A DNA stretch of 64,000 bases, taken from NCBI RefSeq assembly GCF_007747215.1, contig NZ_CP036273.1, positions 1 through 64,000 on the forward strand, in the 5' to 3' direction. Made by a program: the position numbers and the translations under genes. This document shows, piece by piece, positions 29,277 to 33,093 of this stretch. The notes under the pieces were generated by a model, which ran no database searches, was not told the origin of the DNA, and saw only the letters and a list, made by a program, of their open reading frames with translations. Within the stretch, counting starts at the first letter, position 1, and each line of letters starts with the position of its first letter. Origin of the DNA: Urbifossiella limnaea. Its GTDB lineage: Bacteria; Planctomycetota; Planctomycetia; Gemmatales; Gemmataceae.

Positions 29277-30257
29277 GTGTCGCACCCCCCTGCCCCGCCG
29301 CCGCCGCGCCTCCTCGACCAGGTCCGCCACGCCTGCCGGCTGCGGCACTACTCGATCCGCACGGAGGACGCGTACCACGACTGGGCGAAGCGGTTCGTCC
29401 TCTTCCACGGCAAGCGGCACCCGCGCGAGATGGGGGCGGCCGAGGTGACGGCGTTCCTCACGCACCTGGCCGTGGACGGCGGCGTGAGCGCGAGCACGCA
29501 GAACCAGGCCTTCAGCGCGCTGCTGTTCCTCTACCAGGCGGTGCTGGGGGCGGACCCGGGCGTGATTTCCGGCGTGGTGCGGGCGAACCGGCCGAAGCGG
29601 CTGCCCGTGGTGCTGACGCGGCCCGAGGTGGCTCGGGTGCTGGGCGTGATGGCCGACCCGTACCGCCTCATGGCCGAACTGATGTACGGGAGCGGGCTCC
29701 GGCTGCTGGAGGTGCTGCGGCTGCGGGTGAAGGACGTGGACCTGGACCGGTCGGAGGTTGTGGTACGAGAGGGTAAGGGGAACAAGGACCGGGTGACGAT
29801 GCTCCCGGCCGCCGTGCGGCCGCGGGTGGTGGCCCAGCTGGCGGAGGCGCGGCGGGTTCACGAGGCCGATCTGGCCGCGGGCTGCGGCCGGGTGTACCTG
29901 CCCGACGCGCTGGCCCGTAAACTTCCCGACGCCGACCGGGAATTCAAGTGGCAGTACGTTTTTCCCTCGGCTAAGCTGTCGATTGACCCCCGGTCTGGTG
30001 CCGAACGCCGGCACCACGCGCACGAGTCGGCGATTTCGCGGGCGGTGACGGAGGCGGTGCGAGCAGCGGGGCTCGCGAAGCGGGCGACCAGCCACAGCTT
30101 CCGGCACAGTTTCGCGACGCACCTTTTGGAAGCGGGTTACGACATCCGGACGGTGCAGGAATTACTCGGCCACGCGGACGTGGCGACGACAATGATCTAC
30201 ACGCACGTGCTGAACAAGGGCGGCCACGGGGTGACGAGCCCGCTCGATGCGGAGTGA
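29277..30257 (+). CDS. intI: Integron integrase (IntI-type tyrosine recombinase)
   Basis: A site-specific recombinase that inserts and excises gene cassettes at attI and attC. The 326-residue protein has the N-terminal core-binding part ([25 protein letters not shown]) and catalytic residues in [12 protein letters not shown] (Arg), [16 protein letters not shown] (His-x-x-Arg), [15 protein letters not shown] (His and the Tyr nucleophile). Decisively, it has the extra patch found only in IntI between the two boxes: [19 protein letters not shown] then [14 protein letters not shown] (about residues 225-260). It is read toward the cassettes, the reverse of class 1 integrons, an orientation known in some spirochaete and planctomycete integrons. 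The GTG start at 29277 lies in a C-rich leader. Confidence 0.93.
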
Positions 30258-30425: not shown

Positions 30426-30965
30426 ATGGATGACGCCCTGGAAACCCGACGGGCCGCGGCGCTGGCAGCCAGTGAAGCCGGGAGGCTCGCCGAGGAGTAC
30501 CGGCTCTGGCTGCCGCTGGCCGAGGCCGGTGACCCGCAAGCCCAAGGGGCCGTCGGCTCGCTACTCGCATACGGTCTGCACCGGGTCGAACGCCTCGACC
30601 AACTCAGTGCCACCGACGGCCCGGCAGCCGATGAGGCAACGGCGCTCGCGGACCAAGCCGCCGGGGCGCGATACCTGGAGGCCGCATCGGCGGCCGGCTT
30701 CGGACCGGCCTCATTCAACCTCGCCGGGCTGTACGTTGACGGGTACGGCGGGGGGCCGTGGGAAGACCGCAAGGCCCATGCGGCCGAGCTGTACGCTCTC
30801 GCCTACGCGCAGGGGTTCACCGCGTTCGGGTGGTTGATGCAGGGCGAGGGGCCGGGGCAGCCATACCTGGATGTCATGGAGCGGCACATGGCGGGCGAGC
30901 AGCCCGACCCCCCGGAGTGGTGGAGGGCCGAACCCGGCGCTGCAGCAGACGGCCCCCGACTATAG
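30426..30965 (+). CDS. Cassette 1: Sel1-like repeat protein
   Basis: A 179-residue helical protein. GDPQAQGAVGSLLAYGLH and ARYLEAASAAGFGPASFNLAGLYVDGYGGG resemble Sel1-type TPR units with their A.G...A..LG..Y pattern, followed by HAAELYALAYAQGFTAFGWL. It starts 21 bases after the attI-like GTT with GGAGGG as ribosome site, the compact layout of a cassette gene. The last 12 residues (AEPGAAADGPRL) are encoded inside attC and are identical to the end of the cassette 2 protein. Function unknown. Confidence 0.75.
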   Translation: MDDALETRRAAALAASEAGRLAEEYRLWLPLAEAGDPQAQGAVGSLLAYGLHRVERLDQLSATDGPAADEATALADQAAGARYLEAASAAGFGPASFNLAGLYVDGYGGGPWEDRKAHAAELYALAYAQGFTAFGWLMQGEGPGQPYLDVMERHMAGEQPDPPEWWRAEPGAAADGPRL

Positions 30966-31015
30966 GTTTTTCGTGACCACAGCTGGCACGGGCGGGGGCC
31001 GCTGCTGAGCTTTAT
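30927..31015 (+). other. attC: attC1, left and central part (interrupted by the insertion sequence)
   Basis: Starts with GCCGAAC (30927-30933). GCT-CAGCAG-C-GGCCCCCG (30939-30958) pairs with CGGGGGCC-G-CTGCTG-AGC (30993-31010), leaving G30942 and A30949 unpaired, exactly as in attC2. After AGC at 31010 the expected GTT core is missing because the insertion sequence follows. Confidence 0.75.
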
Positions 31016-31032
31016 GACTATGAAGCCGCGGT

Positions 31033-31407
31033 CCTGTCAACTCAAGCGGGCCGGTTTTTCCAGGGTGTTTTTGCCTTTCCGGTCGCTGACCCGCGGTTGA
31101 GGGTCGAGCGAGGCAAACACTACCCCGTCCCCGCCGGCCGCGGGGGCTCTCCACGTCAGTCGGTCGGGGGTCGCCGTCGGGTCGCACTCGACTATTCGGG
31201 CTGCGGTCCGGGTCGCGCCGGGGCGCCGAGGGACCGGCCCACCAACTGGTATCCGCCGCGCCGCCCATTCGTTCGGCCACCACTCCGGCGGGTCACCCCG
31301 CCTCGGGTACACAAAGCTGCGGGCTGGCACGACTGGGTCCCGTTGGCTCTCCCCCCACCATCACGGGCGAGGTCTCACGTCACGTCCGAGGGCTCACGCC
31401 GCCGCCG
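31033..31407 (-). ncRNA. Possible bridge RNA region of the IS element
   Basis: 375 non-coding bases downstream of the transposase on its own strand, with several GC-rich inverted segments and no supported ORF. IS110-family recombinases are known to use a structured bridge RNA made from a non-coding end, downstream of the gene in IS1111-type elements. The other end here is only about 60 bases, too short. No fold or guide loops were determined. Confidence 0.35.
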
Positions 31408-32472
31408 TCAGGCGGCCGTCGCGGCCGGTGCCGGGTCGGGGTCGGCCCGCCACGGCTGGTTGTCCCGGAGCATGGCCCAGCACCGCACCAGCACCCGCCG
31501 CGCGAGGGCGACGACCGCCTGCTTCCGCCGCGCCTTGCCGCGACTCAGCCGGTCGAACACCGCCCGCGCCCACCGGTTGTACCGGAGCATGCACCACGCG
31601 CACTGCACCAGCAGCTTCCGCAGCACCGCCGGCCCTCGCTTGGTGATCCGGCCGCGGCGGTCGTCCTCGCCCGACTGGAACTGCCGCGGGACGAGCCCGC
31701 CGTACGCCCCGACCTGCCGGCCGTTCCGGAACCGCGTCGGGTCGTCGAGGTGGGCGACCACCGCCTCGGCCGTCCGCGGGCCGAGACCGGGGACGGTGTC
31801 GAGCAGCCGGACCCGGGCGTCCGCCTGCCCGATCGCGTCGAGCTTGGCCTCGGCGACCGCGACCAGTTCGTCGGCCTGGCGGTAGGCCGTCAGGGCCAGG
31901 TCGAGCATCCCCCGCCACAGGTCGTCCGCCCCGCACTCGGCGAGCGGCCGGGCGTGCTCGGCGATCCCCGCGAGCCCGGCCGCGGTCCACGCGCGGGCGC
32001 CGCGCGGGGCCGGCAGCCCCTGGCCGACGAGGACCGCCCGGATGCGGTTCTGGGCGGCGACGCGCTGGGTCACGAGCGCCTGGCGGTGGGCGATCAAGGC
32101 CCGCCACTCCCGCACCCGCTTCTGCGGGACGACCACCGTCGGGAGCTGGCCGAGCGCCTCCAGCTGGGCCAGCCGCAGCGCGTCGTCCCGGTCCGTCTTG
32201 CGCTTCGTGTGCTTGTACTTCCACGCCTCGGCCGCGGTGTTGGCGACCTTGACCGGGACGCCGAGCTCGCCGCACAGGTCGGCCACCCACCCGGCGAGGG
32301 TACACGCCTCGATCACGACGACCGACGGGCTCGTGCCCCGGATGAGCCGCTCGACCTCGGCCCGGGAGGTGGTGGTCGTGCGGAACTCGGCGGCGGCGGT
32401 CACCTTGTCGTAGGTGCACGACACGCACTTGTACTTCCCCAGGTCGATGGCGAGAATCGTGGTGCCGGTCAT
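31408..32472 (-). CDS. IS110-family transposase (DEDD recombinase)
   Basis: A 354-residue protein. The N-terminal RuvC-like DEDD domain has LAIDLGKYKC near residue 10, VVVIEACTLAGW near 55 and KRKTDRDDALRLAQL near 95. The C-terminal Tnp20 domain has LLDTVPGLGPRTAEAVVAHL near 215 and VGAYGGLVPRQFQSG then GRITKRGPAVLRKLLVQCAW near 255-295, with the catalytic serine in the QSG segment. The ATG at 32472 has GAGGAG upstream; longer frames extend into flanking DNA. It appears intact. Confidence 0.93.
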   Translation of the reverse strand: MTGTTILAIDLGKYKCVSCTYDKVTAAAEFRTTTTSRAEVERLIRGTSPSVVVIEACTLAGWVADLCGELGVPVKVANTAAEAWKYKHTKRKTDRDDALRLAQLEALGQLPTVVVPQKRVREWRALIAHRQALVTQRVAAQNRIRAVLVGQGLPAPRGARAWTAAGLAGIAEHARPLAECGADDLWRGMLDLALTAYRQADELVAVAEAKLDAIGQADARVRLLDTVPGLGPRTAEAVVAHLDDPTRFRNGRQVGAYGGLVPRQFQSGEDDRRGRITKRGPAVLRKLLVQCAWCMLRYNRWARAVFDRLSRGKARRKQAVVALARRVLVRCWAMLRDNQPWRADPDPAPAATAA

Positions 32473-32532
32473 GATGCGCTCCTCGGGGTGAAGGGGGCGA
32501 CTACCCCCACGGTACACCGCGGCTTGCATCAG

Positions 32533-32546
32533 TTCTTTCGTTCGGC
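32533..32546 (+). other. attC: attC1, right end after the insertion sequence
   Basis: Holds GTTCGGC (32540-32546), the exact reverse complement of the GCCGAAC that opens attC1 at 30927. This supports the view that the two pieces were one site before insertion. Confidence 0.65.
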
Positions 32547-32565
32547 GGCGGAGGGCGCTCGACGG

Positions 32566-33036
32566 ATGCTCGCTGTTGAACTGGAGGTGATCGTCTACCC
32601 CGGCGCGGGCACCGGCTGGCACCGCGAGGTTACCGCAGCGCCGACGTGGCCGCAGATCGAGGCGGCCGTCAGGAGGCTCGACCGTGCCGAGTACCCGTTC
32701 CTAAACATCGTCCTACCCCGGGCCGAGCGGGAAGCCGACCTGTGGGTGCTGAACGTGATTGGCGGCCAAGGCGAGTACGGGCTGTCGGGCAACGACGGCC
32801 GGTGGCGAGAGCGGTGGCGGTTTCGTGATCCCACTCGGCCGTGCGGTCAGGACTTGATCGACATCTGGATCACCGACCAAGGGGCGTCGTTCGAGGAGGC
32901 GTACCTCTGCAACGACTTGGCCGTCGTCCTCCGCGTGTGCCGGCACTTCGCGGAGACGGGCCAGCTTGACGAGGGCGTGGCCTGGGAGCGATGGCCCGCC
33001 GAACCTGGCGCTGCAGCAGACGGCCCCCGCCTGTAG
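32566..33036 (+). CDS. Cassette 2: Imm1-like protein
   Basis: A 156-residue protein. The pattern AAPTWPQIEAAVRRLDRAEYPFLNIVL, then WVLNVIGGQGEYGLS and a later acidic helix resembles the Imm1 (polymorphic-toxin immunity) or DUF6911 group; this is a judgement by eye. It starts at the ATG after GGAGGG, 20 bases after the GTTCGGC heptamer, the same layout as cassette 1. It ends AEPGAAADGPRL, encoded within attC2. The IS element lies just upstream and has separated it from cassette 1, possibly affecting its expression. Confidence 0.7.
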   Translation: MLAVELEVIVYPGAGTGWHREVTAAPTWPQIEAAVRRLDRAEYPFLNIVLPRAEREADLWVLNVIGGQGEYGLSGNDGRWRERWRFRDPTRPCGQDLIDIWITDQGASFEEAYLCNDLAVVLRVCRHFAETGQLDEGVAWERWPAEPGAAADGPRL

Positions 33037-33093
33037 GTTTCTCGTGGCCACAGCTCGCACAGGCGGGGGCCGCTGCTGAGCTAATTGTTCCGC
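32998..33093 (+). other. attC: attC2, complete cassette recombination site
   Basis: A 96-base site, GCCGAAC at 32998-33004 and GTTCCGC at 33087-33093 as outer boxes. The stem GCT-CAGCAG-C-GGCCCCCGCCTGT (33010-33034) pairs with 33059-33081, leaving G33013 and A33020 as extrahelical bases on one strand. A 24-base loop separates the arms. Unpaired spacers flank the outer boxes. These are the structural hallmarks IntI reads in single-stranded attC. Confidence 0.85.

What the first reader, a model, noticed from the sequence alone, without database searches (positions are those of the whole stretch)
30927..32546. IS110/IS1111 element inserted inside an integron attC site
Left of the element is a folded attC lacking its GTT end (30927-31010). 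Right of it is GTTCGGC (32540-32546), the exact complement of the GCCGAAC that opens that attC. Between them are an intact IS110-family transposase and subterminal repeats AAGCCGCGGT/ACCGCGGCTT. A subgroup of IS1111 elements that targets attC sites is known from proteobacterial integrons; here one appears in a planctomycete integron, where it may be a new lineage.
Basis: partly seen in the sequence, partly recalled or inferred. Interest (0 to 1): 0.8.

Follow-up and report, generated by a model that had tools for sequence, protein, structure and literature searches.

The report
RNA-guided insertion sequence in integron attC
A small mobile DNA element in planctomycete bacteria appears to use a self-encoded guide RNA to insert into the recombination sites of integron gene cassettes, a target that a separate lineage of such elements in Proteobacteria reaches independently and at the other end of the site.

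Summary
An IS110-superfamily element (window 31017-32540; transposase on the - strand) splits a genuine attC. The left part scores 61 bits (E 1.4e-13) with an attC model, and the rejoined flanks give a 96-nt attC that aligns without gaps, at 95% identity, to an intact attC elsewhere in the chromosome. Three further copies in this genome sit at the same position of three other attC sites. In relatives from other Gemmatales genomes, 16 of 18 independent elements with a readable right end abut an attC, counting the four own copies.

The transposase clade, which includes relatives at non-attC sites, is separate from the IS1111 clade that holds ISPa21; joining the attC-targeting rows with ISPa21 is rejected (AU p 1e-82). 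ISPa21 inserts at the 5' (R'') end of attC; this element inserts at the 3' (R') edge, G^TTCGGC, with flipped orientation.

The noncoding region downstream of the transposase encodes a conserved bridge/seekRNA-like structure whose two guides match both sides of the R' edge. The top guide covaries with each element's own target (permutation P 1e-4) and, in a relative at a non-attC site, matches that site.

Verdict: an independently evolved, RNA-guided, attC-targeting lineage; a new variant of a known kind.

The parts
29277..30257 (+). integron integrase IntI
   Evidence: TIGR02249 453.5 bits over cut-off 265; PF00589 and PF13495
30927..31016 (+). attC of the first cassette, R''-L''-loop-L'-spacer plus G of the R' box; lacks TTCGGC
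   Evidence: covariance model R1 61.3 bits, E 1.4e-13; 95% identical to intact attC L036 when rejoined
31017..32540 (-). whole insertion sequence (1524 bp), right end (RE) at 31017 and left end (LE) at 32540; includes an extra TTCG at 32537-32540
   Evidence: junctions defined by 4 own-genome copies and by relatives in other genomes
31023..31032 (+). subterminal inverted repeat AAGCCGCGGT at RE
   Evidence: sequence
32516..32525 (+). subterminal inverted repeat ACCGCGGCTT at LE
   Evidence: sequence
31408..32472 (-). IS110-superfamily DEDD transposase, intact, GLVPRQFQSG motif
   Evidence: PF02371 92.5 bits, PF01548 51.7 bits; NF033542 222 bits; motifs
31176..31341 (-). predicted bridge/seekRNA-like RNA in the noncoding region downstream of the transposase: target-binding internal loop followed by a donor-binding loop
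   Evidence: conserved across 12 diverged elements; helices with covariation; single-sequence folds
31310..31318 (-). top-strand target guide AGCUUUGUG, pairs with target CATAAAGCT (9/9 including one G.U)
31269..31277 (-). bottom-strand target guide GCCGAACGA, matches the attC R' box GCCGAAC
   Evidence: conserved 28-nt block
31244..31250 (-). possible donor (LE) guide ACCAGUU, pairs with LE AACTGAT
   Evidence: suggestive only
31188..31195 (-). possible donor (RE) guide AUAGUCGA, identical to the RE terminus CATAGTC plus core GA
   Evidence: conserved in nearly all aligned relatives and in Acaryochloris as ATAGTCG
32541..32546 (+). TTCGGC, displaced remainder of the R' box and start of the second cassette
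32998..33093 (+). intact attC of the second cassette
   Evidence: covariance model 79.7 bits

Best explanation
This is an RNA-guided transposable element of the IS110 superfamily. Its noncoding region downstream of the transposase is transcribed into a bridge/seekRNA with two internal loops. [quoted passage not shown] Together they direct the DEDD transposase to recombine an excised circle into the 3' edge of attC, at or within 2-3 nt of the integrase crossover point G^TTRRRY. The second loop probably recognises the joined element ends. The insertion lands between two cassettes: no cassette gene is broken, but the R' box of that attC is disabled until the element leaves. Shown by sequence: the site, position, orientation, several independent insertions, and covariation of the guide with the target. 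Inferred: transcription of the RNA, its binding to the transposase, the circular intermediate, and loss of attC function.
For: Site: four own-genome copies lie in four different attC sites. The attC model abuts the RE of 16 of 18 independent readable elements. Empty site: rejoined flanks are 95% identical to an intact attC. RNA: about 160 conserved nt downstream of the transposase, with 18 consensus pairs and 92.6% of cells paired. The covariation score of 0.229 was reached by 0 of 500 shuffles, and every slid version scored 0.096 or lower. Guide-target: own-pair complementarity exceeds permuted pairing (P 5e-5 with 13 elements; 1e-4 with 10 non-redundant; 4e-4 without G054). In 6 of 7 elements tested no other position of the 470-nt noncoding region scores higher than the guide. 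Natural retargeting: the G054 relative, at the non-attC site CTTTTGAGAAA^CGTTTGAATAT, has ATACTCAAAC at the homologous guide position against target complement ATATTCAAAC. In G028 the attC reads ACTCACC instead of GCTCACC and the guide changed from AGCT to AGTT. The guide order, top-strand then bottom-strand, is the one shown experimentally for IS1111-type seekRNAs (PMC11187229).
Against: No transcription, binding or transposition data. In G066, G062 and G015 the top guide matches the present target poorly. Within this genome the guide does not significantly prefer the attC sites that were hit (P about 0.06). The donor-loop pairing is short and only suggestive. The permutation tests ignore relatedness of the elements. 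The exact crossover is ambiguous by up to 2-3 nt.
Confidence: 0.86

Rival explanations
1. It is a member of the known proteobacterial IS1111-attC group that spread to planctomycetes.
For: Same superfamily, downstream noncoding region, subterminal inverted repeats, transposase antiparallel to the cassettes, attC target.
Against: ISPa21 groups with IS4321 and other IS1111 members (100/99), away from this clade (100/100); monophyly with ISPa21 rejected, p-AU 1.4e-82. ISPa21 sits in the R''-L'' spacer at the 5' end of attC with its LE facing the attC body; this element sits at the R' edge with its RE facing the attC body. Its closest outgroups (G054, Acaryochloris) are not in attC.
Confidence: 0.06
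2. The transposase itself, or another protein, recognises the folded single-stranded attC; the RNA matches are coincidental.
For: attC is defined by a hairpin and the whole attC is present at each insertion.
Against: Guide-target covariation, including a relative whose guide matches a non-attC site; RNA guidance is established for both branches of the superfamily (PMC11187229, PMC11208160).
Confidence: 0.06
3. The copies spread by cassette shuffling or recombination of one ancestral insertion, not by repeated transposition.
For: All four own-genome copies follow attC sites; the window copy and the 4543 kb copy share an extra TTCG.
Against: The four attC sites joined to the element differ in sequence, the copies differ by several percent in sequence, and relatives in other genomes sit in further different attCs.
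Confidence: 0.04

Closest known systems
IS1111-attC group (ISPa21, ISKpn4, ISPst6, ISPa25; Tetu & Holmes 2008, Post & Hall 2009, PMC11187229)
   Same: attC target, transposase antiparallel to the cassettes, noncoding region downstream, subterminal inverted repeats, guide order top strand then bottom strand
   Different: different transposase clade (30% identity to ISPa21), opposite end of attC (R' edge rather than R''-L'' spacer), flipped orientation to the attC body, extensions about 11/6 rather than 7/3, different repeat (AAGCCGCGGT rather than ATGGACTCTCCCC)
IS621 bridge RNA system (PMC11208160)
   Same: RNA with a target-binding loop and a probable donor-binding loop, a short core shared by the guides, DEDD plus serine motif transposase
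   Different: RNA lies downstream of the transposase rather than upstream; order of guides within the loop reversed; 31% identity over the part compared
IS110 element of Acaryochloris marina plasmid pREC1 (NZ_AP026076)
   Same: 47% identical transposase, nearly identical termini (AGAATCCATG / CTTCATAGTCGA), ATAGTCG in its noncoding region
   Different: not inserted in an attC
group IIC-attC introns
   Same: another mobile element class that targets attC (PMC9229058, PMC7923331)
   Different: retrotransposing ribozyme, not an RNA-guided DEDD recombinase

Membership tests
IS110 superfamily (DEDD RNA-guided transposases) | DEDD_Tnp_IS110 and Transposase_20 domains, DEDD and SG residues | tested here: met
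IS1111 family | subterminal inverted repeats, usually 11-13 bp | tested here: met
   10 bp exact repeat; slightly shorter than usual
IS1111 family | long noncoding region downstream of the transposase with top-strand guide before bottom-strand guide | tested here: met
   definition from PMC11187229
IS1111 family | terminal extensions of 7 bp (left) and 3 bp (right) | tested here: not met
   about 11 and 6 bp from the resolved junctions
IS1111 family | transposase inside the IS1111 clade | tested here: not met
   separate 100/100 clade; ISPa21 and IS4321 elsewhere with 100/99; reference sampling small
IS1111-attC group | targets attC | tested here: met
IS1111-attC group | same insertion point and orientation within attC as ISPa21 | tested here: not met
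   one search compared
IS1111-attC group | transposase monophyletic with known members | tested here: not met
   p-AU 1.4e-82 against ISPa21; ISKpn4, ISPst6 and ISPa25 not on hand
bridge/seekRNA systems | guide complementary to both strands of the target | tested here: met
bridge/seekRNA systems | RNA expressed and bound to the transposase; circular intermediate | not testable with these tools
   needs experiment
integron | IntI plus attC array | tested here: met

The most novel reading that the evidence does not exclude
An IS110-superfamily lineage acquired attC targeting separately from the proteobacterial group by reprogramming its guide RNA, and within Gemmatales its guide keeps tracking the attC spacer sequence of each host. 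It inserts at the phosphodiester that the integron integrase itself uses, so it behaves as a reversible lock between cassettes.
Probability: 0.5. Interest if true: 0.72.

Novelty: new variant of a known kind. Interest (0 to 1): 0.6.

Why it matters
It indicates that attC sites have been chosen as a target at least twice by RNA-guided transposases, from opposite ends of the site, as expected if the guide RNA is easily reprogrammed and integrons offer many neutral landing sites. The set gives natural guide-target pairs, including one retargeted relative, for testing bridge-RNA rules in a new clade, and a case for asking whether such elements freeze or release cassettes.

Tried and rejected
Rfam gave only sub-threshold chance hits. 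The cassette left of the element has no second copy in the genome, so no exact empty site of the same cassette exists; a paralogous attC was used instead. IS4321 as a query for proteobacterial attC elements returned only IS4321/IS5075; ISPa21 was reached through papers and read directly in NZ_CP041734. The Tetu & Holmes paper is not held. A junction pattern with the common attC spacer in 392 genomes drawn from across the phylum found nothing, in line with a lineage found here only in Gemmatales apart from retargeted kin, but an exact pattern is a weak test. First idea rejected: that copies lacking TTCG had lost it; relatives show that the shorter form is typical and the window copy has a 4-nt extra. 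Within-genome preference of the guide for the hit spacers: P about 0.06, not claimed. Donor-guide covariation: too short to claim.

Full report
What is in the sequence. The window lies at the start of a 7.80-Mb planctomycete chromosome (the name is not given; several related records are named Gemmataceae or Planctomycetota). An integron integrase gene lies at 29277-30257 (TIGR02249, 453.5 bits). Downstream are a first cassette, an attC that begins at 30927, an IS110-superfamily element, TTCGGC at 32541, a second cassette, and an intact attC at 32998-33093. A covariance model built from 20 intact attC sites of this chromosome finds the broken attC with 61.3 bits (E 1.4e-13) and the next one with 79.7 bits. 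Rejoining the flanks gives a 96-nt attC that aligns without gaps and with 94.8% identity to an intact attC in the array at 2.20 Mb.

Ends. Three more copies exist in the chromosome: a second full one at 4546 kb, one interrupted by about 1.5 kb of other DNA at 4540-4543 kb, and one with an internal deletion at 4586 kb. Each follows a different attC, always directly after GCTGAGC (or GCTAAGC), five spacer bases and G. The genome has 47 same-strand hits to the empty pattern GCTGAGC-N-GTTNGGC, mostly TNNNT spacers. In transposase orientation the typical junctions are GCCGAA^AGAATCCATGCAAGCCG at the left end and CGGCTTCATAGT^C plus spacer plus GCTCA at the right end. The breakpoint is thus GCCGAA^C, that is G^TTCGGC on the cassette strand, where integron integrases exchange strands (established knowledge of G^TTRRRY), with 2-3 nt of ambiguity because a GA core recurs on both sides. 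The window copy and the 4543 kb copy carry an extra CGAA (TTCG on the + strand), which fits a 4-nt slip between two GA cores in GAAAGA.

Relatives. Related transposases, mostly 54-73% identical over the matched part, occur in about a dozen genomes of the same order (12 of 102 at E 1e-30 including this one). Of 18 independent elements with an intact right end (four in this genome; G028 twice; G002, G015, G001, G061, G066, G062, G089, G077, G092, G054; and L086 and L087, which match G074 and G072), 16 abut an attC found by the model at the right end (read against the end positions). G092 looks attC-like by eye but was not found by the model. G054 is in unrelated sequence. G081 has a broken right end and an attC-like left flank. 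The Acaryochloris plasmid relative (47%) has the same termini but is not in an attC.

Guide RNA. The noncoding region downstream of the transposase holds a conserved stretch of about 140-200 nt. Single-sequence folds show, in most of the sequences folded, a stem (CGCGUC-AGCUC with GGGCGGCGCG), an internal loop whose two strands are AGCUnnGUC and GCCGAACGA, an apical stem of variable sequence, and then a second stem-loop with AUGGGU or CAGUU on one side and AUAGUCGA on the other; the minimum-energy fold of G061 differs in the first part. For the 18 consensus pairs, 92.6% of cells pair, 8 cells have changes on both sides (0 of 500 shuffles), and the covariation score is 0.229, against at most 0.096 for slid versions.

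Guide-target matches. The bottom-strand guide GCCGAACGA equals the R' box GCCGAAC plus the GA with which most target spacers in the relatives begin. The top-strand guide varies between elements and fits each element's own spacer: AGCUUUGUG against CATAAAGCT here (9/9 with one G.U), AGCUUGGG against CCCAAGCT in G061, AGUUUGGGC against an attC with ACT in place of GCT in G028, and ACUCAAAC against the non-attC site of G054. Own pairs score above permuted pairs: P 5e-5 (13 elements), 1e-4 (10 non-redundant), 4e-4 (without G054). G066, G062 and G015 fit poorly, and the preference within this genome is not significant (P 0.06). The order of guides, top then bottom, is that of IS1111-type seekRNAs (PMC11187229). 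The two-loop layout resembles the IS621 bridge RNA (PMC11208160).

Comparison with the known attC-targeting group. ISPa21 was read in plasmid NZ_CP041734. It has 13-bp repeats with 7- and 3-bp extensions and lies at GCTAACAATTCA^TTCAAGCCG, the spacer next to R'' at the 5' end of attC, with its left end facing the attC body. The element here lies at the 3' end, next to R', with its right end facing the attC body. In a tree of 28 transposases the planctomycete clade plus Acaryochloris is 100/100, and ISPa21 is with IS4321 and other IS1111 members (100/99). Holding the attC rows together with ISPa21 costs 168 log units (p-AU 1.4e-82). With non-attC outgroups on the stem (G054 and Acaryochloris), attC targeting appears derived within the planctomycete clade and independent of the proteobacterial one. 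The reference set is small: ISKpn4, ISPst6 and ISPa25 were not on hand.

Mechanism. Most likely the element excises as a circle, its RNA pairs with both strands at the attC R' edge, and the transposase recombines the circle there. The outcome is a clean insertion between two cassettes that removes a functional R' box. Circle formation, RNA expression and the effect on cassette mobility are inferred.

Literature. A search for bridge RNA with integron, and for IS110 with Gemmata or attC, found no report of planctomycete attC-targeting elements among the papers listed from the held open-access library; subscription papers are not covered.

Noticed in passing
window 29277-30257: The integrase gene runs in the same direction as the cassettes instead of divergently as in class 1 integrons.
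   Followed up: no
G000:C1:2202156-2219392 (L022-L044): An array of about 30 attC sites, several nearly identical to those in the window; whether an integrase lies next to it was not checked.
   Followed up: partly
G000:C1:4540382-4541879 (L047, L050): One copy of the element is itself interrupted by about 1.5 kb bounded by the inverted sequence CAGGCCATTCACGGTG, probably another insertion sequence.
   Followed up: no
G000:C1:4529825-4530760 (L001): A different IS110 transposase, grouping with IS621 (100/99), lies inside the cassette array between attC sites; its target was not determined.
   Followed up: partly
L058 (G054:C1:5978699-5979742): A 56% identical relative at a non-attC site whose guide matches that site: a natural retargeting case.
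   Followed up: yes
window 32539-33033: The second cassette encodes a protein with a weak Imm1 immunity-protein match (E 0.0004, just under the curated cut-off).
   Followed up: no
L101, L106, L111 (G061, G092, G077): attC sites whose far (R'') end reads CACATGTTA in place of GTTCGGC, apparently a second attC type in these genomes.
   Followed up: no
window 32537-32540: Extra TTCG at the left end of the window copy recreates a GTTCGGC core next to the second cassette; whether the integrase can use it is unknown.
   Followed up: partly
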